DNA from: Acholoe squamosa
Taxonomy: Eukaryota > Annelida > Polychaeta > Phyllodocida > Polynoidae
Assembly: GCA_949317995.1 (NCBI GenBank)
Contig: OX439035.1
Coordinates: forward strand, 2,966,181-3,030,180
DNA length: 64,000 nt
Direction: 5' to 3'
Shown: piece by piece, positions 3,682 to 21,902 of the stretch
Layout of the letters: each line of letters starts with the position of its first letter
Numbering within the stretch: position 1 is the first letter of the stretch
Notes under the pieces: generated by a model
Told to the model about the DNA's origin: nothing
Seen by the model: only the letters and a program-made list of their open reading frames with translations
Database searches by the model: none
Program-made: the position numbers and the translations under genes

Positions 3682-4227
3682 ACAGGAAATACAAAAACAA
3701 CTGGACCTAGGGGTAATCGTGCCCAGCTCGAGCCCTTGGTCCAGCCCCGTTTCTATGACCACTAAGAAAGACGGTACAATCTGCTTTTGCGTGGATTACC
3801 GAAAGTTAAACGGTATGACAAAGAAGAACTCGTATCCCCTTCCAAGGATGGGTGGGAACCAATGGTTTTGTACCTTGGACTTGCAATCCGGGTATTGGCA
3901 GATACCGATGCACCCGATGACATAGAGAAAACAGCTTTCTCTAGTCATATGGGGCTATTCGAGTATAATGTCTTGCCTTTTGGATTGTGTAACGCCCCGG
4001 CTACATTTGAGGCCATGATGGAATCCCTGCTGAGTGACCTTCTGTGGAAGAAGTGTTTGGTCTACCTAGACGACGTCGTATTCGGCAAGTCGTTTAAGGA
4101 ATGCCACGCGAACCTGCAGCTGGTACTTGACCGGATTCTATCCAACGGTCTAAAACTTAAACCCAAGAAATGTAATCTGTTTAAGAAAACTATTACATAT
4201 CTCGGAAGGATCATAACTCCCAGCTGA
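3672..4227 (+). pseudogene. Element 1 pol: reverse transcriptase core, frameshifted
   Basis: Two overlapping frames carry the RT. The first (to 3925) has the EIQKQLDLGVI and DYRKLN blocks and the TLDLQSGYWQI block with the first catalytic Asp. The second (from about 3915) has LPFGLCNAPATF and the active-site YLDD at about 4066-4077, ending at an in-frame TGA (4225-4227). Between SYPLPRM and WFCTLDL about nine residues usually present in Ty3/gypsy RTs are missing (near 3849), suggesting an internal deletion as well as the frame change near 3915. This RT cannot be made as a single polypeptide. Confidence 0.85.
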
Positions 4228-6014
4228 GTGAGTGCAGATCCGGAAAAATTGGAAGCAGTGGAGAATTGGGAAAGGCCCACGAGTGCTAAGGAGGTTAGAT
4301 CATTTCTAGGATTTTGTTCCTATTACCGTGATTTTATACCGAATTACTCTCGTGTAAGCTTCCCCATGCAATGCTTAGCTCACTGGACCCCGGGTAGGGC
4401 TCGGGACCCATTCCCATGGACCAGCGAGCAAGAAGAATCTTTTAATAAAATAAAAGGTTTGTTTAGGAATACACCTGTGTTGAAATATCCCACTCCCGAG
4501 GGACATTTCATATTATACACCGATGCGAGCAACGACGCCATTGGGGCAGCACTCTCTCAGGTCCAGGATGGAGTCGAGGTCCCATTGGCCTTCGCTAGCA
4601 ACACGCTAAGCAAGACCCAGCGTAATTATTGTACCACTAAACGAGAACTCCTCGCAGTAGTGGTGTATACGAAGAAGTTTAAGCACTTCCTGTGGGGAAC
4701 TGACTTTACTTTGCGGACCGACCATTCGTCTCTAAGATGGCTCCTTAATTTTAAGGATGCCGAAGGGATGATTGGGAGATGGTTAGCTCATCTATCCGAA
4801 TTCGGATTGGAGCACAAGCAAGTCGAGCACCGACCGGGTGCTAAACATATTAATGCGGATGCCTTGTCGAGGCGACCCGTCCGGAAGTGCCAGAATGCCA
4901 CTTGTGAAGGCTGCGGGGCCCACAATGCTGTGGTCGCAGGGTTAGTATTTAACTATACCAACCCCCGAATCCCCTGGGAGGAGGCTGTGTGCAGCTATCT
5001 CGATTGGTCCCCGGAGACCATCAAGAAGTTCCAACAGTCAGACCCCACCACTGCGCGCATAATGGAATACTTACGGATAGGTATTAAGCCGGCAAGGCCG
5101 ATGTTATCCCTGGAAGACAGGGAAACGAGGCGATTGATAGCTCAATGGACCAAGCTGGAGATCCAAGATGGTGTACTGTGTAGGTGGAAAACCACTTCCA
5201 CCGACGGTAGACTACTACAAATAGTGATTCCCACCTCGATGAGAAGGGATATCATGTATTATTGCCATGGCCACCAAACGAGTGGTCATTTCGGAAAGAA
5301 AAGATCAATAGAGCGTCTACAAAGACATTACTACTGGCCCGGAATGAGCAGCGACCTACTCCGGTGGATCGCGACTTGCCCGGATTGTTGTAAAAACAAG
5401 CCGGGACCCGGCCTGGGCAAGCTACCCTTGTCCCAGGAGTTGTTTGGTGTCTGTTTTGCTCGAGTAGCAATAGACATCATCAGTGGATTCAAAACGACAC
5501 CTAGAGAAAATACCTGTATGATGGTCGTAACCGACTACTATACGAAGTATACTCGGGTGTTTCCTCTTCCTAACCACAAAGCCGCTACATGTGCTGAGGC
5601 GCTTGTAAAAGGCTGGGTGCTACATCTGGGTGTCCCCCTCATGATGCACAGTGACCAAGGAAGAGAGTTCGAGTCAGAGTTATGGCAGGAAATGTGCCAT
5701 TACTTAGCAATATGCAAGACCCGAACCAACCTATACCGACCACAGTCGGATGGTCAGGTAGAAAGGTTCAATAGGACTTTGATACAAGTGCTAAAGCCCC
5801 TGGTTAATACCCACTAGGACGACTGGGATAAGCAGTGTGAGTTTGTAGTACACGCCTACAACAACACTGTTCATTCATCTACTAATTGCACTCCAAACAT
5901 GCTAGTGTTCGGCGAGGACATAATTATGCCCGCCGACTTGGTGTATGGAGTGGTTGGGATAGACCCAGAGGCGCCCTGCACTGTGTTGTTTGTGGAGTCG
6001 TTAAGGGACAGGTT
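4228..6014 (+). pseudogene. Element 1 pol: RNase H and integrase (interrupted)
   Basis: This continues the RT frame after the TGA at 4225-4227. RNase H catalytic residues are visible as D99 (YTDAS), E140, D165 and D211 (NADALS), counted from 4228. Integrase follows with an HHCC zinc module (H349, H354, C384, C387) and the DDE triad D416, D476, E512, with exactly 35 residues between the last two. A TAG at 5815-5817 breaks the frame, which otherwise stays open to 6014, where element 2 is inserted. The C-terminus resumes at 21903. The RNase H and integrase residues are intact, so decay seems recent. Confidence 0.9.
6011..6014 (+). repeat. Target site duplication GGTT, left copy
   Basis: GGTT flanks the left LTR of element 2 and is matched by GGTT at 21903-21906. 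Four-base duplications are usual for Ty3/gypsy integrases. Confidence 0.85.
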
Positions 6015-7367
6015 TGTCATACTAGTAATTGGCATGATCAAGTTGTCATATGAGAAATATCATAAGACTAGTGGTATATAGTGTAATTACCTCAAGGCTC
6101 TTATAAATAGTGTTATTTCCAGTTGTCACTGGTTTATTCAGCTTTAGGCAACATGTAAGAAATATCAATCATACAGTAGTTAGTATGTAGGTAATTTGTA
6201 CATACAGTAAATATACAGTAATTTATAAAGTATAATGTTCTGTTCCACTCCACCTGTGAGGTAATAATAATACAATGTCCAGCATAGTTCTAGGTGGGTT
6301 CCCACACCTAGCTCCTGACCTGCTGCTTAGAGGAATAATGTAATAATGAATAACTTTACCCTCTGGTGGATGTCTTGAGGAAGATACCCCCTGGCCACTA
6401 ATGATAGAAACCAATGCCTGTCTAGCATAGTTTCACCATAGTGCAGTGGTATAGCAGGTAGCAGGAGATGACTGGAGATGTTACCTCTAGAGTGGTTCTT
6501 GGTGTTCTGACTGTCTAGGAGGTGCAGCCAGGCTATTTGTAGCAAATCTTGGAAAAGCACCTCCAGACTGACTGGGGCCAGTAGCATCTGCCTAACTCTG
6601 CAATTGTTTGAGGGGAGTCTTTCATGTGTCACTGGGTGCACAAAGGACCCCCATGGACGCCGCTGTGTCCCCCTTTGTCTTGGTAGGTTCTGTAACTTCA
6701 AACCCCCATATCTCGGAAGTTTACGCAGTTACGACCGCCATTTTGCGCATGCGCTGAGTTGAATATGCCAAGTTTATAATGCCCGCTGGATAGGCGCGTA
6801 ACTCGCGCCGGTTTGTCTGTAGTGCACTCGGAGGTTGATTCAGTCTCCATGGCGTAACTTCCTTAATAATGAGAGTTCCGCCTTGATCTTGAGCTCATTC
6901 TAACCGTCTAATTATGGGCTTTCCATAAATGCTTTGATATTTGACCTAAGTTGCTCAGGAGCGACGCTAGAGCGACCGGAAGGTTATGGCGTCGTGCTTA
7001 TGTAACCCATTGTTCAGTCATTAGAGTGCTCAGACACTCATGACGGCGTCAGCGGTGCTCAGGCACCCGTGACGGCCGGTTGCATTCACTTACAACTTAT
7101 TAGTTTGTGCACTGAACCATGAGGTCGCACACTGAGACCCTCATTTTTATTATATTGTGCAGTGAACCATTAGGTCGGAGCCTTTGATGTCACAAACTCT
7201 GTGTAACTGACTTGGCTGGTGTGCAGTGGGGCATGAACGCTCTTATACAAAGTTTGAGCGCTCTTATAGCTCTTAGAACCAACCTATGTATTGATCCCTT
7301 ATACAATACATTATTTGATCAATACAATAATATGTCACAATTTATGGGATAATAAAATGGTATATCA
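6015..7367 (-). repeat. Element 2 LTR, 3' copy in element orientation
   Basis: 1353 bp, begins TGTCATACTAG and ends GGTATATCA on the plus strand. It has the same length as the copy at 20550-21902. A minus-strand AATAAA lies at 7146-7151. Two minus-strand open frames inside (about 124 and 63 codons) also occur in the other LTR, but with only about 1% divergence this says nothing about selection. Confidence 0.92.
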
Positions 7368-7374
7368 TAGAATA

Positions 7375-7387
7375 CTCCCTCTCCCCC
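7375..7387 (-). promoter_or_regulatory. Polypurine tract of element 2
   Basis: On the minus strand this reads GGGGGAGAGGGAG, 7 nt before the start of the 3' LTR. That is the expected position for the primer of plus-strand DNA synthesis. Confidence 0.65.
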
Positions 7388-7719
7388 GAGAAAATGCGAA
7401 ACTCCGTCATTTCGCCGAGGGAATGTACAATCTGCATATTTTTACCTCATTTGGAGTTATATACTGTTTTGTAAGAGGATTTGAAGTAATGGGGATCGCT
7501 TCAAATGCAATTTTTGTGGTAGAGCTTTGTCAGTATAAACAATTTTCTCCTGGGTGTAAGTACATTTCCGAGATTCTATATCTTACCATACCTGGGTGTA
7601 TTTGCTTATGTAACATCAATTTTGGGTACAATTTTCCATTTTTTTATGTACAACATACAATTTGGCAAATAGTGTGCAATTTTGGCATTCAATGTTCAAT
7701 TTAGCGTGCAAATTGAACA
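7388..7719. other. AT-rich spacer of element 2, no gene recognised
   Basis: Mostly A/T with no recognisable motif. A 137-codon plus-strand open frame spans the LTR edge (7291-7704), but its composition is that of AT-rich noncoding DNA. Confidence 0.5.
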
Positions 7720-8100
7720 TAAATGACAATTTAGTGTGCAAATTTACAATTTCGTGTGTAATTGCGTTCAATTGACAATTTTAGTATGCAAATATATAAT
7801 TTTCGCGTACATTTGACAATTTTAGTATGCAAATATATAATTTTCGCATACATTTGGCAATTTTAGTATGCAAATATACAATTTTCGCGTACATTTGGCA
7901 ATTTTAGTATGCAAATATATAATTTTCGCGTATATTTGGCAATTTTAGTATGCAAATATATAATTTCGCGTACATTTGGCAATTTTAGTATGCAAATATA
8001 CAATTTCGCGTTTAATTCACAATTTTAGTATGCCAACATATAATTTTGCGTTCAATTGATAATTTCTGTATGGACATGTATAATTTTGTGTACAGCTTGG
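7720..8100 (+). repeat. AT-rich tandem array with octamer motifs, period about 41 bp
   Basis: About seven to eight imperfect units each contain AATTTTAGTATGCAAATAT followed by a CGCGTA-type segment. Six units hold an exact ATGCAAAT, the POU/octamer recognition core. The array lies between the accessory ORF and the 3' LTR of element 2. Confidence 0.8.
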
Positions 8101-8179
8101 TTACACATAAAAATGTTGATTTTTGTAAAAAAAAACCTGATTTTAGTGTATGAATTGGGTACAGACATACAGTATAATG

Positions 8180-8405
8180 TGCAACATACAATTTAAGTGT
8201 GCAAATTGGGTACAAACTTACAATCTAGTGTGCAACATACAATTTTAGTGTGCAAATTGGGTACGAGCGTACAATCTGGTGTGCAAACATACAATTTTAG
8301 TGTGCAAATTTGGTACGAGCGTACAATCTGGTGTGCAAACATACAATTTTAGTGTGCAAATTCGTACGAGCGTACAATCTAGTTTACACTATACAATTTT
8401 TGGGA
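8180..8405 (+). repeat. Second AT-rich tandem array, period about 57 bp
   Basis: Three to four imperfect units combine TACAATTTTAGTGTGCAAAT with a GGTACGAGCGTACAATCT-type segment. It shares the CAATTTTAGT-TGCAAAT core with the array to its left, so both probably expanded from one ancestral motif. Confidence 0.7.
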
Positions 8406-9118
8406 TTTGAGACAAATTTTTCCGAGGACCGGAAAAACAAAGTACTTCATGTACAATAGGCTTATTTGTCTCTGAGTTACTCTTTGATTTTGCTATATGG
8501 GTGTATTAATTGGCAATTTCGGCAGTGGGCCGCTGCTTAATTGACTTTTCCCCTAGCCTTTTGAGTATGAGTCCCTGAAAGAGATTATTTGGTGAGTATC
8601 TTAAGTAAACATGTTTCATGTCAACAATTTTCTCAACAAAAAAATTTTTTTTTTCATTCATTTTTTCCAACAATTTTCTTGGATACCTAAAGTGTGTTAC
8701 TTTAAGTAAACCTTGGTATAGTATACAAGTGCTAGTGGGTACAAAAACTGTCTTAGTTATCTACCTGCATTCATGTATATTAATGTTAGATTTGTACAAT
8801 TTACAATTTGTAATTTGCAATTTCGCAATTTTGCGCGTATATGTGCGCATTAATCATCGATTTTGTGAGAATACCATAGATTTTCATATTATACATCAAC
8901 AAGTGGCTGTGTATATTTTCTAATTTTTTTTTCTAATACTTTGATAATTTCATTGACAGTGGAGGTGTGTCAGGAGTGAGATGTGAGTCTCCTCCCTGAT
9001 GTGCTCATGCAGTGGTGGCACTTGAGGTGTTAGGTGCCAGATTCTGGCATGTGTCTGTGTCAGTGCCTAGCTTGGTGTCAGTGGACAGTTCAGGGTGGGG
9101 GGGGGGGGTGTGTGTGTC
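8406..9118. other. AT-rich spacer upstream of accessory ORF
   Basis: No gene recognised. AT-rich to about 8955, then a change to GT-rich sequence with a G run at about 9097-9108. The 101-codon plus-strand frame at 8618-8923 looks like chance. Confidence 0.5.
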
Positions 9119-9120
9119 CA

Positions 9121-9156
9121 TTTAAGGAGTGTGTGGCTGGTATTGGAGTATCAGTT
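9121..9156 (+). promoter_or_regulatory. Candidate core promoter for the plus-strand accessory ORF
   Basis: A TATA-like TTTAAG at 9121-9126 lies 32 bp before the A of an initiator-like TCAGTT (9151-9156). The predicted leader to the ATG at 9185 is about 32 nt. Spacing fits a TATA/Inr promoter, but both motifs are short. Confidence 0.4.
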
Positions 9157-9184
9157 CCTCTCTGGAAACCTCTGTTGTAACACC

Positions 9185-9664
9185 ATGGCCCATCTTCAAG
9201 CTATCTTTGCTTTGCCTGTCTCCCAGGTGATGGAGGTGGGGGGTCCGGCTAGGGCCCTGGTGGAGGCCAACCAGGCCATACACTATGGCTACATAGTGAG
9301 GAATTTCAAAGAGATCATTGAGCATGGTGATGTGTTGGTCTGCAAGTACTCCTGCCACTATTTCTTGGGCTCAGCCTTGCGTCGGGGGGCCACTGTGGCC
9401 CTTCTGGCTAGGGCCTTGGGTAATATGGGGTTCTGGCCCATGGACTATAACTTCGGGCCGCGGGAGCGAGTGTTATGGGATTATCTGTTGGCAGCGTCCC
9501 TCATCGATCTTGCGGCATCCGGGGACCCATCTATGGCCGCCGAGTATGGACTGGGGTTGATGGAGGCCCGGCTTGTTGAGTGGGAACATGACCACGGCCA
9601 CATGTATGGATCGGACTCGGACTCCCACTCTCCCATCGATGTTGAACCCGAGGATCTGTGGTAG
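9185..9664 (+). CDS. Accessory ORF antisense to element 2, 159 aa, unknown function
   Basis: The ATG at 9185 sits in a strong Kozak context (CACCATGG); the frame is open from 9095, but only this ATG is well placed. The protein is not recognised. It starts MAHLQAIFALPVSQVMEVGG, has an alanine/leucine-rich, probably helical core, and ends in an acidic Ser/Asp-rich tail (GSDSDSHSPIDVEPEDLW). No signal peptide or membrane segment is evident. It is GC-rich against AT-rich surroundings and opposes the gag-pol-env direction, converging on env, which ends at 9814. A histone-type stem-loop begins 47 nt after the stop. With the promoter-like motifs upstream this looks like a compact intronless gene, possibly captured from a host; that is inference. 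Confidence 0.6.
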   Translation: MAHLQAIFALPVSQVMEVGGPARALVEANQAIHYGYIVRNFKEIIEHGDVLVCKYSCHYFLGSALRRGATVALLARALGNMGFWPMDYNFGPRERVLWDYLLAASLIDLAASGDPSMAAEYGLGLMEARLVEWEHDHGHMYGSDSDSHSPIDVEPEDLW

Positions 9665-9711
9665 GATCCCGACTGACTGAAACCTAGGGTGTAAAAACCC
9701 GCCATCCCAAA

Positions 9712-9727
9712 GGCCCTTTTCAGGGCC
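9712..9727 (+). terminator. Histone-type mRNA 3' stem-loop
   Basis: GGCCCTTTTCAGGGCC forms a perfect 6-bp stem with a TTTC loop. It fits the histone stem-loop pattern (GGYYYT-TTTC-ARRRCC), including the CCAAA 5' flank. It begins 47 nt after the stop at 9664, within the usual range for replication-dependent histone genes. A GAAAAG stretch about 13 nt downstream could be a weak histone downstream element. On the minus strand the loop reads GAAA, so the motif is only meaningful for plus-strand RNA. Confidence 0.75.
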
Positions 9728-9813
9728 GGCAAATTGTCCGAAAAGTTCTGAATACTGTCTCTGATATGTTGTCTCCTGGTGGTGGACTGGGGGCAGTCTA
9801 GGCTGAGGGCAGT

Positions 9814-12438
9814 CTAGGCTGTTTCCACAGTCACCGGGGAGGGCTGGTGGTTTAGAAAATTAGCAATAGTCTGCATGTTTGACCTTGCGGTCTCCTCCTG
9901 TTGTTCGTCAATAATTATATCTGTTGTATTTTCCAGTGCTGTCATGGTCACCGGGCTGGTGCCACAATCATTCTGGAGAAGCATGGAGTAGTACAGTCCT
10001 TTGTTTTTAAGGGCTGGTATGGTACTGAACCTAGTGCGCCAAGGTAGGTGTATCACCTGAGGGAGGTGATAAGCAAATTCTCCTCTCTGTGTTGTTATAA
10101 CTGCTGGTCCATTCCAGGTAAATATAGCCTTAGGTAGTGGGAAGGTTTTAACCACTATATCCTTATAGGTAGGGGCAGCTGCTGATTTAATCTCATTAAA
10201 TTCATGTGGTATTGGCCTCAAGGGTAGCGCGAAGTTTGAGTCTCCACAATATATTTTAAAATATATTGTGGGATTTGTGCGCTTGGCCACATTTTTCTTG
10301 CCACAGTGTGTCTGTGCAAATTTCTTAAGGTACTTCATTATTCTGTAGGCTGAGTAGATGGTCAGGGTAAATAATATAGCAATTATCAGGGTGTGGGTTT
10401 CCTGAATTGTGAGGAAAGGGGTGTGGGTTTCCTCTGTAGGGGTTAATTTGGTAGGATTCTTATCTGGGAGCAATTTGTGTAGGGGCAGCTCGGTGACTAG
10501 TCTGAATGATTTGGCTGTAGGCAGGTAGGCTACAGTCCCTCCTAGTCTGTACAGTTTGAGTAGTATGTATACTATAAAAATGTGAGCTGATATCCCTAGG
10601 ATGAGTCCTAAGCTTTGGAAGATTGGATGCTCTGTAACTCGACGTAGGTGTGATTCTACGTAGCGTGTTTCCATTGCCTTATCAAGGTTGGAGGCATCTT
10701 TCAATAATGTTTTGGCAAAGGGCTCCAAATTTAGTTGAGTAATATCATCCATGATTGGATTTTCCTGTAGTTTTTCTAAGGTTCTAGAAAGGTTTACTAC
10801 TGGGAAATTTGGAAGATTCTCTCTTTCATCTGGTTTGGTTTCGGAAATTTGGTTAAGTGCTGCCATGAATGGTAAATTGATTGTCTTGAGAATGTAATGA
10901 AATGATAAGGTTGAGTTGCAGGGCAACCTTGTGTTTGGAAGAGAAAATTCTCCTACACTGATTGTGCACCCACAGGGTACACCTATGATTGAGTAGGACT
11001 GGGCTTTTTGAGTTTCAGACGTTTTACCATGGCCGTTGATAAAGTAATGGGGTTCATTAGTAGTGACCAGATACTCATCTTCAGAAATGGAAATAGCATG
11101 GGTGGTAGGTGCTTGTAGTGGTGAAACTGTAAACTTGCAATGTTCCTTAATCTGTTGAGCCTGGTTAGTAAAAATGGCTACAGGGCATGTAGGCCTGTGT
11201 TTATAGATTCTACCATTTACATCTCTGCATACCTTTACTGTAGTACCTTCACATGCCTGCATATCTGCTGAGTCCAATTCGATGAATAATGATTCGTCGT
11301 AAGATACTGCTAGAAACTCAGTTGTGGTTTGCAACTTGGTGACTCCTCTGGTGGGGGTCTCCTGTGTGTCTATAGGCATGGGTGATGTAATCATTTGGTA
11401 CAGTTTGAAGGTTGAGGTGGTAGATTGAATTATAATGTCCAGATGAATATATATATGGTGAGCTGAGTAAGTGTATGAGGTCAGCTTCTGTGAATAATAG
11501 AAATCCAAGTCATTAATTGTGACTTGTGCTCCAGGGTGTGTAATCCTAAGTTTGTTATTAATGTCAATTAAGTATCTAGCAAGGTCTGAGGGTGGTACTA
11601 TATCAGGGGTTAGGATTCCTGATGATAGCATCCTCAGGGCTGCATTTGTCCTTTGCAGTGATTGAACTGTATTCATTCTTGCTGCTATGATAATTAATGC
11701 ATCATTTAATACTTGCATTTTTTCCCTTTGAGTTTTCTCGTGCCTTGAATATGAGTCAAGTGACCTGGACATGTTAGAGGCCCACAGGTTGACGGTGTCA
11801 CCTATGGTGTTGATTGTGCTGTCTAGTACCTTCTTATCTTGGATGTATGCTTTAACAAACTTATCTTGTCTGTCTGTGATCTTCTCAATGAGACTAGCTG
11901 CTTCCTGATCCTGTTTAGCAAACTTTCTTAGTATTTCATCTATGTTCTTGAGCTGTCCCATTACTTGGTTTACATCTTCTACTGTGGCTAGACCTAGCAC
12001 ACCGCGAAACAGGGGTGCTAGAAAACCCAGTATGGCCTCTCTTTTGGCCTTGTCCAATGTGTTTATGGGGTTGGATAGGAACAATTTGATGGAGGCTAAT
12101 GTTTCATTTATCTCCTTGTCTGCAATTTCCAGCAAGGTGTCAAGCTCTTTGGCTTGTTGGATAATTTGGCCAGAGGTATGATCTTGTAGAGTAGGAGTGG
12201 TCAATTGGAGTATTCTATCCCTTATGGATCCTTGGGTAACGGGTGCCCGAGGTATCTTGTAGGGGATAGCTAGCAACAGTGTTGTGGTTGTATGTCCATT
12301 GACCAATGGTTGAGGGCTAAGTTTGAATACTACTCCTATGTTTTGTCTCACCACGGGTGTATAACCTGCAGTAAGTGGTTCTATAGTATATAATAACAGC
12401 ATAGTTAGCAGTATGGGTGAAACTCTCAGTCTCCCCAT
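9814..12438 (-). CDS. Envelope-like glycoprotein of element 2
   Basis: 874 aa from the ATG at 12438; an upstream in-frame TTG adds six residues but is not needed. Residue numbers below count from that TTG. There is an N-terminal signal peptide (about 13-30). A basic KAKR (136-139) precedes a hydrophobic Gly-rich segment GFLAPLFRGVLGLA (144-157), the layout expected of a protease-primed fusion peptide in F-type env proteins of baculoviruses and errantiviruses. A helical region follows, then a Cys-bearing ectodomain with NLS and NST sequons. One membrane segment lies at about 614-635 and a second hydrophobic stretch at about 688-704, then a long C-terminal part of about 170 residues. The frame is intact. 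Assignment to the F family rests on layout only. Confidence 0.7.
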   Translation of the reverse strand: MGRLRVSPILLTMLLLYTIEPLTAGYTPVVRQNIGVVFKLSPQPLVNGHTTTTLLLAIPYKIPRAPVTQGSIRDRILQLTTPTLQDHTSGQIIQQAKELDTLLEIADKEINETLASIKLFLSNPINTLDKAKREAILGFLAPLFRGVLGLATVEDVNQVMGQLKNIDEILRKFAKQDQEAASLIEKITDRQDKFVKAYIQDKKVLDSTINTIGDTVNLWASNMSRSLDSYSRHEKTQREKMQVLNDALIIIAARMNTVQSLQRTNAALRMLSSGILTPDIVPPSDLARYLIDINNKLRITHPGAQVTINDLDFYYSQKLTSYTYSAHHIYIHLDIIIQSTTSTFKLYQMITSPMPIDTQETPTRGVTKLQTTTEFLAVSYDESLFIELDSADMQACEGTTVKVCRDVNGRIYKHRPTCPVAIFTNQAQQIKEHCKFTVSPLQAPTTHAISISEDEYLVTTNEPHYFINGHGKTSETQKAQSYSIIGVPCGCTISVGEFSLPNTRLPCNSTLSFHYILKTINLPFMAALNQISETKPDERENLPNFPVVNLSRTLEKLQENPIMDDITQLNLEPFAKTLLKDASNLDKAMETRYVESHLRRVTEHPIFQSLGLILGISAHIFIVYILLKLYRLGGTVAYLPTAKSFRLVTELPLHKLLPDKNPTKLTPTEETHTPFLTIQETHTLIIAILFTLTIYSAYRIMKYLKKFAQTHCGKKNVAKRTNPTIYFKIYCGDSNFALPLRPIPHEFNEIKSAAAPTYKDIVVKTFPLPKAIFTWNGPAVITTQRGEFAYHLPQVIHLPWRTRFSTIPALKNKGLYYSMLLQNDCGTSPVTMTALENTTDIIIDEQQEETARSNMQTIANFLNHQPSPVTVETA

Positions 12439-13268
12439 GGTGCTTGTGTAAAGCAAGTTTTGCTGTTTAAAGTCTTGTCAAATTTGTAGTGATTTGGTGC
12501 TGGTAAAGTCTAAGTGTATGGTGTAACACTTTAAATGAGGTGGTTCAAACTGTACCTTTGCAAGATTGAGCTGTCTTGGCAATATGTCCGGTGAGTCTAT
12601 AGAGATTGACCAGTAAATGGTAAGGTCAGGTTGAAGGTGAAGTAGGTGTGTTCTTTATCCTAGTGCAGTCTCTCCTAATGGAGAAGTGGGCTGGCTAATT
12701 CCCAAGTGGGGTCCTGTAGACTTGTGTTCCAGACTGCAGCTGGATGAAGACTGATGGTGGGCTATGGTCCACAGTGCTTCTTATGTAGCCTACCCTACCC
12801 ACATCCATTGTGGGCCTGGTATTGTTTCTCTGGAGTAATGTACCTAATCTCCAGTGTCTGCAACTGTGGGGTTCTATTGTGTGATCTGTGTACTGGTAAT
12901 TAGCTCCTCCTGTCATCCAGGACAGCCATTCATGACCGTCTAGACAGTTGTCTGAGGGTAGCTTATAAGGTCAATTGATCTCTATAGACTGCTGTGTTGG
13001 CATAGCGCGCTCTTTCATGTGGGGACTAGGCTTTAGACACTCCATTGTGTTACCCTTACTCTTCTTAGACTTCATGTCTGCTTTACTTGGAGGGTCCCAG
13101 TCTTTGACCCTTTCAGAGGCAATAACCTACTGAAATATTTACAAATTTGATTGGCTTTATATACATATAAGTAATTCATTATCAGTCACACATGTCTTAT
13201 GTGTGGATGAAGAGAATTTGTAATACATTTTGAAAATCTTATGTTCTTTTGGTATCTCAATCTTGTTT
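12439..13268 (-). other. Spacer between integrase and envelope-like gene of element 2
   Basis: About 830 bp without a recognisable coding domain. A 73-codon minus-strand frame (12695-12916) is not identifiable. An env-type mRNA would need a splice acceptor near here, but I cannot pick one with confidence. Confidence 0.4.
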
Positions 13269-15545
13269 CTAATTTCTTGAAACTGCACCACACCTAGATG
13301 TCTTTCTTAGTATGTGGTGTGCAGGCCTAGGCTTGATAGGGCCTATGCCTGTGGTTTCTCTTGTAAGGGTGATATCATTTTTGTTCCTTACAATTTTGTT
13401 GTAGTATTTGGCCTCATGTGGAATAAGCCTGTGTGCAAATTCATTGTTTCTGACAGCCACAACCTTTTTCAGTCTGTCTATGTGCACTGGTCTGGCCACC
13501 AATAGATTGGTGTCCAAGTTTTTGAGTTTGGCACTTGTCAAACTAGGTCTGTCTACTACAACATATGGTCCCATAAAAAGGGGCTGAAGTTTCTTACACT
13601 CTGTGTTGGTCAGGATTCTTGGTATGTTTAGGTACACCATGTCGGTGACCTTGATTTCCTGTGGTGTAAGTTTCTTATCGTATCTATCTTTTCTTTCCTT
13701 TTGTAGCTTGGCGACCCTTTCTATAGCTTTCCTCCTAGAGGTATCTTGATTTGTTATCATGTTAGCTACATGGTCTGCTACGGTGGATATGTCTTCCTGT
13801 ATTCCCAGCCCTAAGTCCATTGGGGTGGCTGGGTTTCTTCCATGGAGTAGGAAGAAAGGGGTGAATCCTGTGGTTTGGGATTCTGTGTTATTTAATGCAA
13901 AGGTTATGGGTTCAATAAATGAATCCCAATTGTTTTGGTGCTTTGAGCAGAATGCTCTGAGCGCTGTGCCGATGCTAGCATTGAATCTCTCTACAAGCCC
14001 ATTTGATTGTGGCCTGTATGGTGAGGAGAATTTATGTTTGATCTTGAGGTGTTTAGTTAACTTTGTGAACTTTGCACCTGTATAACATGTTCCATTGTCT
14101 GTTTGAAGAGTGGCTGGTGTTCCATGATGACAAATTATATTCTTGTAGAACTCTGCTGCTGTTGTTTCAGCTTTTAAGTCAGTAGTAGCCCAAGCTGTTG
14201 CATATCTGGTAGCATAATCTATGCAGACTTGTATATGTTTGTTTCCCCTGGCAGTTGTGGGAAGTGGTCCCACCGCGTCTAGGTTTAGGAACTTCATTGG
14301 TGAAGCCATGTACTCTCTCACTGTCATTGGTGTTTTGTGTGAGTGTACTTGCCTTTTTGCTGTGAGGCATGTGTGGCAGGTGGAAACATATTTTGTTGTG
14401 TCTGCTAGCATAGATTTCCAATATACCCTAGGTCGGAGTGCTGACAGCATTCTACTTGAACCAAGATGGCCGCCAGTAGGTGAGTCATGAAAATACTGTA
14501 GTGTACTTGTTACCCATTGCTGTGGTATAACAATTTGAAGTGGTACAGTATTGGTTTTTCTCCAATTTATGGGGCATATATGGACTAATGTACCATTTAC
14601 CAAGGTGTATGTCTGGCCTTGGTTGATGATTCTATTTCCTTGTGCTTTTGGTGCAGGCAAGGTCCCATCCTCAAGATATTGTATGAGGGGCAATAGTTCC
14701 TTGTCCTTCCTTTGTTCCAAGCCAAGGTTTGTACCTGAGATGGATGTGTCGGGAATCTGATCCAGTAGTTGATTTATATCTAGCACATGTTGTTTTATTC
14801 TGTCTCTTTCTTTTTCTTTTTCATCGACTATTGGCCTATCTTGTGCCTTTTGTTGGGGTGTGTCACTCTTGTTTTGGTGTGTAGGCTCCTTTGGAGGGCC
14901 TATTCTCGCCTTGATGGGAGTGGCAACCTTTTTCTTCAAAGGCACAATTTGCTTTTTGTCATTCTTCTTTGTCTCAGAGTTCTTTGACTTAGTAGATGTA
15001 GTGTCTTTTGTGACATTTTTCCTGGCAGGTGGGGTTTTGGTAGGTTTGTTTCCTGTGACCTTTTTCTCATTTAGAATAGTTTGTGATTGTGTGGGGGGTT
15101 TTGGTGTGCCCTCCTGAATCATTTCTCTAGTCTTTGAGCGTGTGGTCATAGGACACAAATGGTTTGATATTTCCTCTCCCTGCATAGGTTCAAAGAATCT
15201 GACTGATTTGGAAGTTGCTTGAGTAATAGCATATATTGTGTCTTCTGAATCTTCATCATCTGAGTCAGGTGGGGTGAAGGGTGGCTCCTTAGGAGTTGCC
15301 TTCAGCATCTGATTGAGTGATGAGAATTCGATAGGCTCGAAGTCATTATCTGGAAAGAGTTGTGAGTATTCTCTCTCACAGTGGCAAAACACATAGTGTG
15401 TAGATTGCTTCAAGATACCCCTAATGGGTGTCTCTGGCCTTTCAATGGTGTTGGGTGGATCATCCCTTTTGAATGGTACTTTCTTTGTTACTTTTGCAAA
15501 CTTGGTTCTACTGGCTGCTCTAACTCTCCTTGGTGGGGGGGGGGA
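13269..15545 (-). CDS. Element 2 integrase region of pol
   Basis: The frame is entered by a -1 shift in the C10 run and is open from there to 13269. The formal 714-codon frame from 15413 begins with a TTG that is not a real start. An N-terminal low-complexity Lys/Thr/Pro-rich region of about 200 residues precedes an HHCC module (H309, H316, C346, C349, counted from 15413) and the catalytic D379, D439, E475, with 35 residues between the last two. The C-terminal region has a GPYVV motif of the GPY/F type. All catalytic residues are present, so the integrase should be functional if the frameshift works. Confidence 0.88.
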   Translation of the reverse strand, partial: SPPPPRRVRAASRTKFAKVTKKVPFKRDDPPNTIERPETPIRGILKQSTHYVFCHCEREYSQLFPDNDFEPIEFSSLNQMLKATPKEPPFTPPDSDDEDSEDTIYAITQATSKSVRFFEPMQGEEISNHLCPMTTRSKTREMIQEGTPKPPTQSQTILNEKKVTGNKPTKTPPARKNVTKDTTSTKSKNSETKKNDKKQIVPLKKKVATPIKARIGPPKEPTHQNKSDTPQQKAQDRPIVDEKEKERDRIKQHVLDINQLLDQIPDTSISGTNLGLEQRKDKELLPLIQYLEDGTLPAPKAQGNRIINQGQTYTLVNGTLVHICPINWRKTNTVPLQIVIPQQWVTSTLQYFHDSPTGGHLGSSRMLSALRPRVYWKSMLADTTKYVSTCHTCLTAKRQVHSHKTPMTVREYMASPMKFLNLDAVGPLPTTARGNKHIQVCIDYATRYATAWATTDLKAETTAAEFYKNIICHHGTPATLQTDNGTCYTGAKFTKLTKHLKIKHKFSSPYRPQSNGLVERFNASIGTALRAFCSKHQNNWDSFIEPITFALNNTESQTTGFTPFFLLHGRNPATPMDLGLGIQEDISTVADHVANMITNQDTSRRKAIERVAKLQKERKDRYDKKLTPQEIKVTDMVYLNIPRILTNTECKKLQPLFMGPYVVVDRPSLTSAKLKNLDTNLLVARPVHIDRLKKVVAVRNNEFAHRLIPHEAKYYNKIVRNKNDITLTRETTGIGPIKPRPAHHILRKTSRCGAVSRN

Positions 15546-18024
15546 GGGTTAGTCATGGGTCCAGAGTCTGGGTATTCTCTTCTAGACATAGCATCTGGTG
15601 GCGTGTTATCATCACCTTTCACGTGTTGGATGGTGAATGAAAATTGTTGTATGTCTAGAGCCCATCTGGCCCATCTATGTGTGAGTCCTGTATTGGTTAA
15701 TAGTGGGATTAGGGCTGCATGGTCTGTGTATAATTGGAAGTGTCTAGTCTCTAGATAGTGTCTGAAGTGTAATACTCCATACACTACTCCCAGTAGTTCT
15801 CTCTCTGTGGTATTGTAATTTCTCTCATGTTTGGAGAGGGCTCTACCTGCAAAGGCTACTGGTCTGAGCACTCCTTCATTATCTCTCTGTGAGAGTACAG
15901 CTCCTAAACTCACATTGGAAGCATCAGTTGCCAAACTGAACTCTTTCTCGTAGTTTGGATATCTGAGAAGAGCATTGGTACAGAGGGCATGCTTTAAAGT
16001 TTTGAAAGCATTATCTGCATCCTCTGTCCAGACAAATGCTTTGAGATGTGTCTGTAGATCATACAATGGTCTAGCAATTTGGGCATAACCTTTGATAAAC
16101 TTTTTGAAGTATTGGCACAGGCCTGTGAAAGATCTGACATTTTTGACTGATTTTGGTGTTGGGAAGGTTTTGATTGATTCCACCTTTGTGGGAGATGGTT
16201 GCAGTCCCATGGGTGTGACTCTCATTCCCAAGAAGTCTATTCTGTCTATGAAGTATTCACATTTTGATTTCTTCAGTTTGAGTTTACCAACTCTTAGGCT
16301 GTTGAACACATCTTCCAGGTCATGGAAGTGTTGTTCGATTGATGGTGATAATACCAATATGTCATCTAGGTATGGTAGGGCACATTTGTATTTGAGTTTG
16401 TTCAGAATTAATGTGACTAGATGGCAGAATCGCGCAGGTGCGGTCGCTAAATCCATCGGCATCCTTTCATAGACATATTTTTTGTCATTTGCTATGAATG
16501 CGGTTTTATGCTGGTCCTCCTGTCTTATAGGGATTTGAAAAAATCCCTGTTGGGCATCTAGCTTACTGAATACTCTTGGTCTGAGTGACCCTATCATGTC
16601 TAGAGTGTCATCGGCTCGGGGTGTAGATAAGGCTTGATTTATCGTGTTTTGGTTCAAATAACGAAAATCTGTGACGAGCCTATGGCCTCCCGATGATTTT
16701 TGTACTAAAAAGGATCTGGAAGCCCAGGGGCCCTCAGCACATTCTCTCAGAATGCCCTGTTGTACTAGCCTTTCACACTCTTCCCCTATTGCGGCCTGTT
16801 TTTCTGGTGTTTGTGTATATGGTAGGAAATGACATGGTATTGCTTCAGGTTTTACGTGTATTGAGTGGGTATACAGGTGTGTGGCACCAATGTCTCCATC
16901 TTTTCCTACAAATATATCATCATACTTGGTCAGCAGTGATTCTAATCTATCATGCTGATCTTTGGATGTGAGCACAGATTTTGGTGGAACATTCTCTTCC
17001 AATTCTGGCTCGAGATCATGTGCCTCACTATGTATAGCAGCTATTTCAGAGAGTCTGATTGAGTTGGGTTCAGGGTCAGCATATGTGGACTCACAGTCTG
17101 AGTCTGTGTCACTGAATTGAGTTACATCCTCAGGCCGTATGGCTGAGATGGATTGATCAGTGTGTGGGGTAGTGTCTGACACCTGTTGAGGTTTTTCTAA
17201 ATCAGATTCCTTGACTTCCTGAAATAGAGCTATGATGGCACCCTTTTTGACTTTATGTGGGCGCCTGCTGGTGTTGAGTAACACTAGGGGATGTTTGTTA
17301 TTTTCCCTGGGGGTTACTGCTGCCCTTTGAACTAGATATGGGGCATTGTTATTTCTTTGGAGGTTATCTACTACTCCAGTTTTCCCTTGCAGTGATTGAG
17401 TAGATGTGACCTTACCCAATACTACAAGTTCAGAGAATGGAGGGATGGTAAAATCCCTCACTGCCCTAATGGGTTTGAGAATTTGTTCAGGATCAACATT
17501 AAATTCAATTTGAGATTTTGTAGTGCTTAAGAAATCTGTGCCGAGAACAACGGGCTGTGTGAGGTTGGGAATTACAGCAAATTGGTATTGGAATCTGACA
17601 CCTTGGATTCTAAAGTTCAGCATCGCTGAATGTCTAACATGACACACCGATCCATCTGCCAAATGGATGTTGATTTTAGATTTCCTCAGTTGGATATGGA
17701 CTCTCTTTTGGAGATCCATGAGGAATGATTGTCTGACACAGGTGATAGTAGCACCTGTATCAACCAAACATTGTACATCTGAAACATCATATAGATTTGC
17801 ATTGATACAGCCATTTTGAAGAAGTACAATAGAAAGCTTGGTACTCTCACCTGTATCCTTTGATGATGAATCTGGTGGGGTGATGTGTATCACTGATGGA
17901 CGTCTCTGTCTGTTAGATGGTAGATTGGCACTAGCAATTGTCTCTGGTTGGATCCTTCTTAATCCTGATTGATTGTTTGTTTTTGGGGTGTCACAGTGCA
18001 CTGGCCCATCGGCACTGTGACATC
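15488..18024 (-). CDS. Element 2 pol: protease, reverse transcriptase and RNase H
   Basis: The frame is -1 relative to gag and is entered near 18028. The GTG at 18001 is simply the first codon of the formal open frame. Counting from 18001: protease LVDTGA (D81); RT with FSKLDAQQGFFQI (D482) and PYLDDIL (D546, D547); RNase H D693, E735, D760, D803. The usual RT FGL before the NAPA block reads MDL here (about residues 516-518), an unusual change in a conserved turn. The frame ends in a proline-rich stretch encoded by the C10 run. Full length for a Ty3/gypsy PR-RT-RH unit, without internal stops. Confidence 0.9.
15535..15544 (-). promoter_or_regulatory. C10 slippery run linking RT/RNase H and integrase frames
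   Basis: On the minus strand a run of ten C follows CCT in the RT frame. The integrase frame is the -1 frame. It has a TAA just upstream of the run and is open after it, while the RT frame stops at 15488. The overlap where switching can occur is therefore about 15488-15548, and the C run is the only obvious slippery element in it. A sequencing indel in the homopolymer is an alternative. Confidence 0.55.
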
Positions 18025-18034
18025 CTAGTTTTCC
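18025..18034 (-). promoter_or_regulatory. Gag-pol frameshift site GGAAAAC before gag stop
   Basis: The end of gag reads G GAA AAC TAG on the minus strand, the TAG being 18027-18025. The -1 frame continues open into protease. GGAAAAC departs from the strict X XXY YYZ rule at the P-site but keeps the AAAC A-site and the position directly before the stop, as in element 1. Confidence 0.55.
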
Positions 18035-20058
18035 TGGTTCTGTGGGGTGGTTGAGATGGTTGCCACTAGGAGCTTGGAGATTTGATCCATCACATGAGGT
18101 GGTATTTGGGGGTTACTGTGTTGGTTCCCCTGGTAACCTCTTGTGTCAGGTTTGTAATCCTCCTGGCGTGAGTTGGAACCCTGGTTATATTGACCAGAGT
18201 TGCTGTATTGACCGGAGTTGTTGGATCTCTGGTTGTTGTAGGCACCATTGTTGTTGTAGGATCCACTGTTGTAGTTCCTTTGTGGACTATGGCTTCTACT
18301 GTTGGATCCTTGATTATAGGATCCAGAGTTGTAGCTCCTATGTGGACTGTGGCTCCTACCGTTGGATCCTTGACTATAGGATCCAGAGTTGTTGTCACCC
18401 TGGTTGTTGTAGGATCCATTGTTATAGTTCCTATGTGGACTATGGCTCCTACTGTTGGATCCTTGATTGTTATAGGATCTGCCAGTACTTGGGGTTCTGT
18501 CTCTTCTATCACTGTATGGAGAGTTACCATTGTTGGAGTTGGAAGAGCTGTTGTCTTTCCTACTGTTGTGACCCCCCCGGTTGTTGTTGTTGCCCCCTCT
18601 ACCTCTACCTCTATTGGATTGGTAGTTGGGGTCATAGTTATTTCCTCTATATCTACCGGTAGGGTCTCTTGATGCAACCTTAGCCTCCTGTTGCCTTACA
18701 TGGGCACTAGACATTAGGTTAACATCTTCATCTGCACTAGTGCTGATTTCCTGGACCTTTTCCTTAGTAGGCTGTGGGTTTGACTCTGCCTCCCTTACCT
18801 TCCTAGATCTTTCTTGGGTCTCAACCTCTAAGGCTAGGTCTAGGGCTTGGTCAAAAGAGTCTATTTTCTTGTTCTCAAGAGCTACAAATGCCTTGCTTAG
18901 GATTTCATCGCTTTGGCGTTGGGCATTACACACTTTTCTGAGGTGGCATGCATAGTCTAGGACAGGTTCATCTACCTTTTGTGCACGGAGTGCTGTCCTT
19001 GAGATGATATTGTCTCGAGTAGCAAAATACTCTTTTAATTTATTCACTACATTGGTCCATGTCAACATATCAGGTGTGGCACTTTCCCTGAAGGATTCAA
19101 ACCAAGCTAGTGCTTGTCCTTCAAGGTACTTGGGTAAATATGTTACCATGGTGTCACTGTCTGTTACTTTGTACTTATCTTTCAGATACTCTGGGAATTT
19201 GTGATCAATAAATAATGCTGTTGACATGAGTGGTGATGGGTGTGAAAAGGTTTTGGGTTTTGTTACCTCATGTAGCCTGATCTTTCTGTCGTCCTGTTGT
19301 TTTCTGTCTATGAGTTTGGTCATGTTGGACACCATGGAGATTATGATGTCATCTTTGGATCCAGAGGCAGATGGTGGGACAACAGGTGTGATGGCAGGTG
19401 TGGGAGGCTGTGGGGTCTGGGATGATACCATCTTCATGAGATCTGCTATCTGTTGTTGTTGTCTCTCTAGGGACTTCCGCTGGTCTTCCATGGCCTTCTG
19501 TTGGGCATCTATTGCTGCATTCCTCTCTGCCAGTTGTTGGTTGAGGATCCTCTCCCTTTCCTCCTGCTGGGACTTGTTGGTCTCTAGGGCAGTAACTGCA
19601 TCTTGGATGGCCTTCTCATAGGCCCTTATCTTCTCAGCTGTCTGATTAGGTTGGGGGCCTTCATCGGTGTCCATGATGGAGGGTGTGGGAGAAGTGTCTC
19701 TGGAGGAGTGGCTGTCAAAGGCTGGAGCTGGGGTGGAGGATCTGGATGAGGGTGTGGATCCACCCCCTGAGGTAGATCCTTCTCCCCCTGAGGTAGATAG
19801 TGTGAGTTGAGCGTCCTGTAGAGATTCCTGGGAAATGTTGGATCCCTGAGAACTGGTTGTTCCCTGAGTAGACAGGGTGGGAGGTGTGGGGTCTACTGAG
19901 TGTGGGTCTGTTGTACTGGAGGCTGATTTGCCTCCTGTGGGCCTCCTAGATCTAGGTGGGAGGGAGACCTCTTCAACAGGCCCCTGACTACGTAAGGTCT
20001 TTGTGTGTTGTTCTGCCAGCTTGACTGATAAGACCTTGATGTGTGGGGTGGACCTCAC
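18025..20058 (-). CDS. Element 2 gag
   Basis: The formal frame of 677 codons begins with a GTG at 20058; the first in-frame ATG is at 19674 (giving about 550 aa), so the true start is uncertain. The N-terminal part is Ser/Thr/Pro-rich. A Gln/Glu-rich coiled coil follows, then a capsid-like domain with LEGQALAWFESFRE, the conserved Trp block of retrotransposon gag. The C-terminus has no CCHC knuckle. It has an RG-rich patch (NRGRGRGGNNNNRGG) and tandem repeats around RSHSPHRNYN, which probably do the RNA binding. It overlaps the frameshift into pol. Confidence 0.85.
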   Translation of the reverse strand: MRSTPHIKVLSVKLAEQHTKTLRSQGPVEEVSLPPRSRRPTGGKSASSTTDPHSVDPTPPTLSTQGTTSSQGSNISQESLQDAQLTLSTSGGEGSTSGGGSTPSSRSSTPAPAFDSHSSRDTSPTPSIMDTDEGPQPNQTAEKIRAYEKAIQDAVTALETNKSQQEERERILNQQLAERNAAIDAQQKAMEDQRKSLERQQQQIADLMKMVSSQTPQPPTPAITPVVPPSASGSKDDIIISMVSNMTKLIDRKQQDDRKIRLHEVTKPKTFSHPSPLMSTALFIDHKFPEYLKDKYKVTDSDTMVTYLPKYLEGQALAWFESFRESATPDMLTWTNVVNKLKEYFATRDNIISRTALRAQKVDEPVLDYACHLRKVCNAQRQSDEILSKAFVALENKKIDSFDQALDLALEVETQERSRKVREAESNPQPTKEKVQEISTSADEDVNLMSSAHVRQQEAKVASRDPTGRYRGNNYDPNYQSNRGRGRGGNNNNRGGHNSRKDNSSSNSNNGNSPYSDRRDRTPSTGRSYNNQGSNSRSHSPHRNYNNGSYNNQGDNNSGSYSQGSNGRSHSPHRSYNSGSYNQGSNSRSHSPQRNYNSGSYNNNGAYNNQRSNNSGQYSNSGQYNQGSNSRQEDYKPDTRGYQGNQHSNPQIPPHVMDQISKLLVATISTTPQNQEN
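18250..18480 (-). repeat. Tandem repeats in gag C-terminus
   Basis: Three to four imperfect copies of a unit encoding SRSHSPHRNYNNGSYNNQG-type peptides. They are rich in Asn, Ser, Tyr and Gly. The coding frame is preserved across the repeats. Confidence 0.75.
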
Positions 20059-20398
20059 TGATGTGTGGGGAGCTCACTGACGTGTGGGAGACCTCACTGA
20101 CGTGTGGGAGACCTCACTGACGTGTGGGAGACCTCACTGACGTATGGGAGACCTCACTGACGTGTGGGAGACCTCACTGCCGTGTGGGAGACCTCACTGA
20201 CGTTTGGAGACCTCACTGACGTTTGGGAGACCTCACTGACGTGTGGGAGACCTCACTGACGTGTGGGAGACCTCACTGACGTGTGGGAGACCTCACTGAC
20301 GTGTGGGAGACCTCACTGACGTTTGGGAGACCTCACTGACGTTTGGGAGACCTCACTGACGTGTGGGAGACCTCACTGACGTTTGGGAGACCTCACTG
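20052..20398 (-). repeat. 20-bp minisatellite in element 2 leader
   Basis: About 17 near-perfect copies of ACCTCACTGACGTGTGGGAG (plus strand) lie between the PBS and gag. Most copies contain TGACGT, the CRE/ATF half-site core. Sequence variants alternate GTGTGG and GTTTGG. Confidence 0.9.
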
Positions 20399-20546: not shown

Positions 20547-20549
20547 CTT

Positions 20550-21902
20550 TGTCATACTAGTAATTGGCATGATCAAGTTGTCATATGAGAAATATCATAA
20601 GACTAGTGGTATATAGTGTAATTACCTCAAGGCTCTTATAAATAGTGTTATTTCCAGTTGTCGCTGGTTTATTCAGCTTTAGGCAACATGTAAGAAATAT
20701 CAATCATACAGTAGTTAGTATGTAGGTAATTTGTACATACAGTAAATATACAGTAATTTATAAAGTATAATGTTCTGTTCCACTCCACCTGTGAGGTAAT
20801 AATAATACAATGTCCAGCATAGTTCTAGGTGGGTTCCCACACCTAGCTCCTGACCTGCTGCTTAGAGGAATAATGTAATAATGAATAACTTTACCCTCTG
20901 GTGGATGTCTTGAGGAAGATACCCCCTGGCCACTAATGATAGAAACCAATGCCTGTCTAGCATAGTTTCACCATAGTGCAGTGGTATAGCAGGTAGCAGG
21001 AGATGACTGGAGATGTTACCTCTAGAGTGGTTCTTGGTGTTCTGACTGTCTAAGAGGTGCAGCCAGGCTATTTGTAGCAAATCTTGGAAAAGCACCTCCA
21101 GACTGACTGGGGCCAGTAGCATCTGCCTAACTCTGCAATTGTTTGAGGGGAGTCTTTCATGTGTCACTGGGTGCACAAAGGACCCCCATGGACGCCGCTG
21201 TGTCCCCCTTTGTCTTGGTCGGTTCTGTAACTTCAAACCCCCATATCTCGGAAGTTTACGCAGTTACGACCGCCATTTTGCGCATGCGCTGATTTGAATA
21301 TGCCAAGTTTATAATGCCCGCTGGATAGGCGCGTAACTCGCGCTGGTTTGTCTGTAGTGCACTCGGAGGTTGATTCAGTCTCCATGGCGTAACTTCATTA
21401 ATAATGGGAGTTCCGCCTTGATCTTGGGCTCATTCTAATTGTCCAATTATGAGCTTTCTATAAATGCTTTGATATTTGACCTAGGTTGCTCAGGAGCGAC
21501 GCTAGAGCGACCAGAAGGTTATGGCGTCGTGCTTATGTAACCCATTGTTCAGTCATTAGAGTGCTCAGACACTCATGACGGCGTCAGCGGTGCTCAGGCA
21601 CCCGTGACGGCCGGTTGCATTCACTTACAACTTATTAGTTTGTGCACTGAACCATGAGGTCGCACACTGAGACCCTCATTTTTATTATATTGTGCAGTGA
21701 ACCATTAGGTCGGAGCCTTTGATGTCACAAACTCTGTGTAACTGACTTGGCTGGTGTGCAGTGGGGCATGAACGCTCTTATACAAAGTTTGAGCGCTCTT
21801 ATAGCTCTTAGAACCAACCTATGTATTGATCCCTTATACAATACATTATTTGATCAATACAATAATATGTCACAATTTATGGGATAATAAAATGGTATAT
21901 CA
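20550..21902 (-). repeat. Element 2 LTR, 5' copy in element orientation
   Basis: 1353 bp, same ends and length as 6015-7367. Differences cluster in the middle (about 21280-21510). Transcription of element 2 would start here on the minus strand. Confidence 0.92.
21775..21803 (-). promoter_or_regulatory. Candidate TATA boxes in element 2 5' LTR
   Basis: The minus strand has TATAAGAG twice (21796-21803 and 21775-21782), about 100 bp from the 5' edge of the LTR, upstream of an AATAAA at 21681-21686. A short U3 would follow from this; not verified. Confidence 0.3.

What the first reader, a model, noticed from the sequence alone, without database searches (positions are those of the whole stretch)
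9121..9735. Histone-like mini-gene on the opposite strand of a retrotransposon
A TATA/Inr-like promoter, a Kozak ATG, a 159-codon intronless ORF and, 47 nt after the stop, the stem-loop GGCCCTTTTCAGGGCC with its CCAAA flank reproduce the architecture of a replication-dependent histone gene. The protein is not a histone. An RNA ended this way would be non-polyadenylated and S-phase linked, and antisense to the env-to-LTR part of the element. I know of no LTR element with such a unit.
Basis: partly seen in the sequence, partly recalled or inferred. Interest (0 to 1): 0.88.

Follow-up and report, generated by a model that had tools for sequence, protein, structure and literature searches.

The report
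Retroelement gene with histone-type 3' end
A virus-like jumping element found in many copies in one genome carries, on its opposite strand, a small protein gene that ends in the signals typical of histone genes, which suggests that a mobile element has borrowed the cell's S-phase histone mRNA machinery for a protein that is not a histone.

Summary
An env-bearing Ty3/gypsy-type element (minus strand, 6015-21902) carries between env and its 3' LTR a plus-strand 159-codon ORF (9185-9664), with TATA/Inr-like promoter elements and a histone stem-loop 47 nt after the stop. Exactly 13 nt after the stem stands AAAAGTT, the element found 13-14 nt after the stem in this genome's H1 genes. Stem-loop, 13-nt spacer and AAAAGTT together occur 1,313 times genome-wide, 0 times reversed. 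The ORF is under purifying selection (pN/pS 0.22; omega=1 rejected), and only this frame is open. The host has an SLBP-like gene. No relative of the protein was found outside this genome. One copy of another subfamily differs by 15-20% in promoter and ORF but 1-3% in env, stepping at the stop codon. A 1.27-kb piece with the unit and the env tail sits in subtelomeric loci beside herpesvirus-like genes. I read it as an antisense accessory gene using the host SLBP/U7 histone 3'-end pathway. RNA ends, S-phase timing and protein function are untested.

The parts
6015..7367 (-). 3' LTR of the element (TG..CA; 4-bp target duplication AACC)
   Evidence: 1355-bp match 6013-7367 / 20548-21902 at 98.9%; ends and duplication read
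20550..21902 (-). 5' LTR of the element
18025..20058 (-). gag-like ORF
   Evidence: Ty3_capsid and Retrotrans_gag matches below Pfam cut-off
15488..18001 (-). protease, reverse transcriptase, RNase H ORF
   Evidence: Pfam RVT_1, RT_RNaseH, gag-asp_proteas
13269..15413 (-). integrase ORF
   Evidence: Pfam Integrase_H2C2, rve
9814..12456 (-). env-like ORF, 880 aa
   Evidence: relatives P0001-P0007, two of the seven with precomputed PF12259; no Pfam match of its own above cut-off
9119..9127 (+). TATA-like CATTTAAGG; the same place reads CATAAAAGG in the g3 copy and TATAAAAGG in the subtelomeric copies
   Evidence: CATTTAAG in 46 of 48 element copies, TATAAAAG in 22 of 22 subtelomeric loci
9149..9158 (+). 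Initiator-like TATCAGTTCC
   Evidence: TCAGTT in 44 of 48 element copies and 22 of 22 subtelomeric loci
9185..9664 (+). antisense ORF, 159 aa, no known family
9707..9727 (+). histone-type stem-loop with CCAAA 5' flank
9741..9747 (+). histone-downstream-element-like AAAAGTT, 13 nt after the stem
   Evidence: same heptamer and spacing as in host H1 genes; genome count
8838..10107 (+). stretch (with a gap at about 8968-9031) also present in subtelomeric loci with herpesvirus-like genes

Best explanation
It is a real antisense accessory gene of a high-copy, env-bearing Ty3/gypsy-type element. RNA polymerase II starts at an internal TATA/Inr-like promoter on the plus strand, and the intronless transcript codes for the 159-aa protein. 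Its end is made as in replication-dependent histone mRNAs: SLBP binds the stem-loop, U7 snRNP pairs with AAAAGUU, and cleavage a few nt after the stem gives a short mRNA without poly(A). This should couple the protein to S phase and gives a compact end just short of the convergent env gene. The protein is most likely an S-phase accessory or regulatory factor of the element with a lineage-specific role, because promoter and ORF look exchanged as a cassette between otherwise near-identical elements. Shown: the sequence elements, their match to host H1 genes, their presence across copies, purifying selection on the ORF, and the cassette pattern in the one g3 copy read. Inferred: transcription, 3' processing, S-phase timing, protein role.
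For: ORF open in its frame in 45 of 45 distinct full-length element sequences, while each of the five other frames has stops in 45 of 45; pN/pS 0.22 (the two copies with premature stops were left out). omega=1 rejected for the element copies (lnL -1781.2 free, -1819.1 fixed) and for all 57 distinct sequences (-2435.3, -2481.4) (fast tree search, omega value not printed). Exact stem-loop in 42 of 46 full-length copies, three of the other four with a G-U closing pair. Stem-loop, 13-nt spacer and AAAAGTT in the arrangement of host H1 genes. 1,313 perfect triads in the genome, 0 in the reversed control. SLBP RNA-binding domain encoded in the genome, two pieces. TATA/Inr-like elements retained. No canonical poly(A) signal for 530 nt after the stop. 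The subtelomeric form passes Rfam's Histone3 cut-off, 34.3 against 34.
Against: The window copy is below Rfam's gathering score, and its 3' flank GGCAA is unlike the host ACC(C)A. The six H1 genes were selected by a pattern holding AAAAGTT; three of eight Rfam-found non-element loci have a variant instead. Lower variation of stem-loop+HDE than of the other 3' sites is only suggestive (p 0.09 within element copies; p 0.085 between window and subtelomeric copy), so much of the 1,313 count may be shared descent. The U7 candidate scores 16.6 against a cut-off of 34, and the reversed control of its pattern gave nine matches against six. One of the two SLBP pieces has a stop in its aligned range. 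No RNA data. Protein role unknown; fold prediction failed (pLDDT 47.5).
Confidence: 0.72

Rival explanations
1. The ORF is a real antisense gene, but the stem-loop is a relic or coincidence: the mRNA is polyadenylated further downstream or unstable, and nothing is tied to S phase.
For: Rfam score below cut-off; constraint on the stem-loop beyond its flanks is not significant; three full-length copies have a G-U closing pair and one has lost the 3' part.
Confidence: 0.16
2. The unit acts mainly as an antisense RNA against the sense genomic and env mRNA (self-limitation through double-stranded RNA), and the protein is secondary.
For: The whole unit is complementary to the sense 3' untranslated region. 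Antisense RNAs without coding capacity are reported for other elements (PMC7264820, passages seen).
Against: Strong selection on the protein sequence: variation at codon positions 1, 2, 3 is 0.026, 0.013, 0.064 per site and copy, pN/pS 0.22.
Confidence: 0.06
3. The unit was a gene of a herpesvirus-like virus, and the retroelement captured it.
For: The same unit stands near a herpesvirus major-capsid-like ORF in subtelomeric loci.
Against: The shared stretch includes the tail of env (window 9814-10107, about 93% identical in three of the four subtelomeric loci aligned; the fourth, L019, aligned poorly there), which makes sense only as part of the retroelement; the subtelomeric ORF is closest to the g3 copy (dS 0.21, against 0.53 to the window).
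Confidence: 0.05

Closest known systems
Antisense additional ORFs (aORF-3R) of plant LTR retrotransposons: Grande gene23, RIRE2, Retand, PvRetro13 (PMC7264820; abstract and passages seen)
   Same: Conserved antisense ORF between the last sense gene and the 3' LTR, no recognisable relatives, own promoter in Grande.
   Different: Here the element has an env gene, the genome is not a plant's (inference), and the ORF ends in a histone-type stem-loop plus downstream element. The word 'polyadenylation' does not occur in that review, and the passages shown describe no histone-type end.
Replication-dependent histone genes (host H1 genes L090, L092-L096)
   Same: Uninterrupted ORF; stem-loop 41-73 nt after the stop followed by AAAAGTT at 13-14 nt.
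   Different: The product is not a histone; 3' flank GGCAA instead of ACC(C)A; three of the six H1 genes have a second stem-loop in front; the unit is carried by a mobile element.
HTLV-1 HBZ (recalled; the antisense promoter in the HTLV 3' LTR is mentioned in PMC7264820)
   Same: Antisense accessory gene of an env-bearing retroelement near the 3' end.
   Different: The promoter here is in the internal region, not in the LTR; no bZIP or other Pfam match; histone-type end, whereas HBZ RNA has poly(A) (recalled).
Extra ORFs shared between different retroelement types in bdelloid rotifers (PMC5408684; start of abstract and passages seen)
   Same: One kind of accessory ORF found on different kinds of mobile elements, including telomeric ones.
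   Different: Those have enzymatic origins; no histone-type end appears in the passages that I saw.

Membership tests
Replication-dependent histone gene | Codes for a histone | tested here: not met
   No Pfam family for the protein
Replication-dependent histone gene | 3' stem-loop of the histone type | tested here: met
   Consensus exact; Rfam 23.5 bits, below the cut-off of 34; the subtelomeric form scores 34.3, above it
Replication-dependent histone gene | Histone downstream element for U7 at fixed distance | tested here: met
   AAAAGTT at 13 nt, as in host H1 genes; pairing with U7 itself not established
Replication-dependent histone gene | mRNA without poly(A), S-phase regulated | not testable with these tools
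   No RNA data
Antisense additional ORF (aORF-3R) of LTR retrotransposons | Antisense ORF between last sense gene and 3' LTR, kept in most copies | tested here: met
   Position; 148 of the 150 best-scoring copies without stops at 90-100% identity (150 of 1672 candidates scored, a list that favours intact copies)
Antisense additional ORF (aORF-3R) of LTR retrotransposons | Transcribed from an antisense promoter | not testable with these tools
   TATA/Inr-like elements conserved, no RNA data
HBZ-type antisense gene | bZIP protein from a 3' LTR promoter | tested here: not met
   No Pfam match; predicted start at about 9153, the LTR begins at 7367
Env-bearing Ty3/gypsy-type LTR element | LTRs, gag, pol with RT-RH then integrase, env, short target duplication | tested here: met
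   gag matches are below Pfam cut-off and env is assigned through its relatives

The most novel reading that the evidence does not exclude
A mobile element has put its antisense accessory gene under the host's SLBP/U7 histone 3'-end pathway, so that a non-histone protein is made in S phase from a poly(A)-less mRNA, with about 1,300 such ends now in one genome, far more than the handful of host histone ends that my searches listed (core histone genes were not searched). Promoter and ORF travel as an exchangeable cassette between element lineages, as would be expected of a lineage-specific immunity or counter-defence gene, and a copy was also taken up by a herpesvirus-like element at chromosome ends.
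Probability: 0.35. Interest if true: 0.92.

Novelty: new variant of a known kind. Interest (0 to 1): 0.8.

Why it matters
Metazoan histone mRNAs are described as the unique class that lacks poly(A) and ends in a stem-loop (abstract of PMC12775136, seen only in a search listing). A selected, non-histone, retroelement-borne gene with the set of signals, at over a thousand places, would show that mobile DNA can take over this pathway. It would open testable questions about S-phase coupling of retroelement genes and competition for SLBP and U7. My searches of an open-access full-text library for histone stem-loops together with retrotransposons, transposable elements or viruses found no such case (no paper; 20 of 21, 12 of 59 and 10 of 16 papers listed, none on this subject by title and start of abstract). 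That library lacks most subscription journals.

Tried and rejected
Chance stem-loop: rejected by the host-type downstream element and the reversed-pattern control. Histone relic: no histone similarity. Outside relatives of the protein: none among 817 candidates scored with one sequence or 6752 with a seven-row alignment from a database of 5.8 billion proteins, none in viral contigs, none convincing in PDB sequences (best E 0.69). Fold: single-sequence AlphaFold2 at pLDDT 47.5 is not usable, so no fold search was run. Relation to two other non-histone stem-loop genes (L045, L046): none detectable. Herpesvirus-to-retroelement transfer: disfavoured by the env tail. Stronger constraint on the stem-loop than on its flanks: right direction, not significant (one search gave a distorted first version for the 3' region because a truncated copy and copies with indels were in it).

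Full report
Element. The window lies in an unnamed 1.48-Gb genome (G000:C1:2966181-3030180). I take it to be an animal's (inference from SLBP, linker histones and TTAGGG arrays; no call names it). A minus-strand LTR element fills 6015-21902: LTR match of 1355 bp at 98.9%, 1353 bp between TG and CA, target duplication AACC, purine tract before the 3' LTR. It carries gag, PR-RT-RH, integrase and an 880-aa env-like ORF. It is inserted in another, plus-strand gypsy-type element. Between the env stop (9814) and the 3' LTR (7367) lies 2.4 kb that holds the plus-strand unit of the finding.

The unit. TATA-like 9119-9127, Inr-like 9149-9158, start codon 9185, stop codon ending at 9664, CCAAA plus stem-loop 9707-9727, AAAAGTT 9741-9747. 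The stem-loop consensus has 0.03 expected matches per window. Rfam Histone3 gives 23.5 bits, below its cut-off of 34. No AATAAA/ATTAAA follows on the plus strand before 10195.

Copies. A search with the protein gave 1672 first-look candidates; 150 were scored, all full-length or nearly so at 90-100% identity, the window's own copy included; 148 of 150 had no stop (the list favours intact copies). I read 48 copies (the eight, among them the window's own, and forty chosen down the list, including both with stops). 46 had the full ORF. Of these, 42 had the exact stem-loop; three had the closing pair changed to G-U; one lost the 3' part. 40 of 46 have exact stem-loop, 13 nt and AAAAGTT. CATTTAAG is present in 46 of 48 and TCAGTT in 44 of 48. 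Genome-wide, GCCCTTTTYAGGGCC-N13-AAAAGTT occurs 657+656 times with 0 reversed controls. Only the first places are listed there; the count includes subtelomeric copies and at least one unrelated locus (C2:63260605, the same place as L091).

Selection. Among 46 full-length element copies pN/pS is 0.22. On the 45 distinct ones, each of the other five frames contains stops in 45 of 45. A codon model with omega=1 is 37.9 log units worse for the element copies and 46.2 for all 57 distinct sequences. Codon positions 1, 2, 3 vary 0.026, 0.013, 0.064 per site and copy. The two copies with premature stops were dropped before these counts. Recombination, which I infer below, could disturb the codon model.

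Host comparison. Eight places match a stem-loop with ACC flank followed by AAAAGTT; the pattern let the distance vary from 5 to 18 nt. Six stand behind linker-histone genes (PF00538 in 6 of 6), two have no such gene. The distance is 13 nt in five H1 genes and 14 in one; in the element it is 13. Because that pattern demanded the heptamer, the independent test is the Rfam search (75 of 291,945 candidates scored): of its eight non-element loci above cut-off that I read, five have AAAAGTT at 12-14 nt (two H1 genes, L013, L014, L015) and three have variants (L010, L011, L016). An SLBP RNA-binding domain is encoded on C9 in two pieces, both over the cut-off, one with a stop in its aligned range. A U7 candidate, L099, has AACUUUU, AAUUUGUCUAG and a 3' hairpin but scores only 16.6 bits, and the reversed pattern gave nine matches against six, so it is tentative. 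Core histone genes were not searched.

Cassette. One copy of a further subfamily (g3, L098) differs from the window by 15% in the promoter part and 18-20% in the ORF (dS 0.48), while the 95 nt after the stop are 96% identical and env 97-99%. The step falls at the stop codon. Selection on the protein cannot explain the synonymous difference, so I read this as recombination that exchanged promoter and ORF. The upstream break lies beyond what I could read. Only this one g3 copy was read. One search lists 114 further rows at 75-83% identity to the subtelomeric protein; most show one stop in the aligned range. In L098 that stop is the ORF's own end at codon 158; the others were not checked.

Subtelomeric form. 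Thirty-four Histone3 matches of 34.3 bits, above the cut-off, lie within about 340 kb of an end of C1-C18 or on C21, C36 and C38, whose lengths I did not see. The 22 of them that I read all carry a 153- or 161-aa version of the ORF, 65-70% identical to the window's, with TATAAAAG, TCAGTT, stem-loop and AAAAGTT at 13 nt. In one search the 34 rows of 94-100% identity have one stop in one row. The shared stretch corresponds to window 8838-10107 and includes the env tail. Near it, on C1 and C8, stand large ORFs with matches to herpesvirus major capsid protein (E 4.8e-7, above Pfam's cut-off), UL52 primase (5.8e-4, just below), phage-type integrase (1e-4, below) and Bcl-2 (1.4e-12, above), and TTAGGG arrays. 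The simplest history is that a g3-like element gave a piece to this DNA, which then spread over chromosome ends. From g3 to the subtelomeric form dS is 0.21 and dN 0.10, so selection there is weak or unresolved.

What it is. Shown: a selected antisense protein gene with promoter-like elements and the cis-signals of host histone 3' ends. Inferred: processing by SLBP/U7, no poly(A), S-phase timing, and a regulatory or counter-defence role of the protein. Against: sub-threshold Rfam score of the window copy, unusual 3' flank, no significant extra constraint on the stem-loop, weak U7 candidate, no RNA evidence.

Novelty. Antisense accessory ORFs before the 3' LTR are known in plants (PMC7264820: abstract and passages), and extra ORFs shared between retroelement types in rotifers (PMC5408684: passages). 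I found no report of a histone-type 3' end on a mobile element in the searches.

Noticed in passing
L039-L044; G000 subtelomeres: Endogenous herpesvirus-like DNA near many chromosome ends: ORFs with Pfam matches to herpes major capsid protein (above cut-off) and UL52 primase (just below), an integrase-like ORF, a Bcl-2 ORF, and internal TTAGGG arrays; two units in inverted orientation on C3.
   Followed up: partly
L045:5146-5601 (-) and L046:4587-4910 (+): Two further uninterrupted non-histone ORFs (152 and 108 aa, acidic C-terminal parts) with TATA-like element, histone stem-loop and CACAAAAGTG / CACAAAAGTT downstream; no Pfam family above cut-off.
   Followed up: partly
L091 (also L048), L097 (also L049), L047, L016: Histone-type stem-loops with ACC flank and no histone-like ORF just upstream.
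   Followed up: no
L098 against window 9103-10465: Identity steps from about 80% to about 98% at the stop codon of the antisense ORF: promoter and ORF look like an exchanged cassette.
   Followed up: partly
L099 (G000:C3:80684230-80684430): Candidate U7 snRNA with AACUUUU in the 5' part, AAUUUGUCUAG and a hairpin; Rfam score below cut-off, pattern not above its control.
   Followed up: partly
window 29389-64000: Long tandem array, period about 850 bp, with seven tRNA-Cys genes in it.
   Followed up: no
window 20051-20398, 7764-8094, 8140-8400: Tandem repeats of 20, 41 and 51 bp, in the element's 5' leader reaching just into the listed gag ORF, and in the part between env and 3' LTR.
   Followed up: no
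window 320-5817 and 21965-22507: A plus-strand gypsy-type element interrupted by the insertion of the element described here.
   Followed up: no
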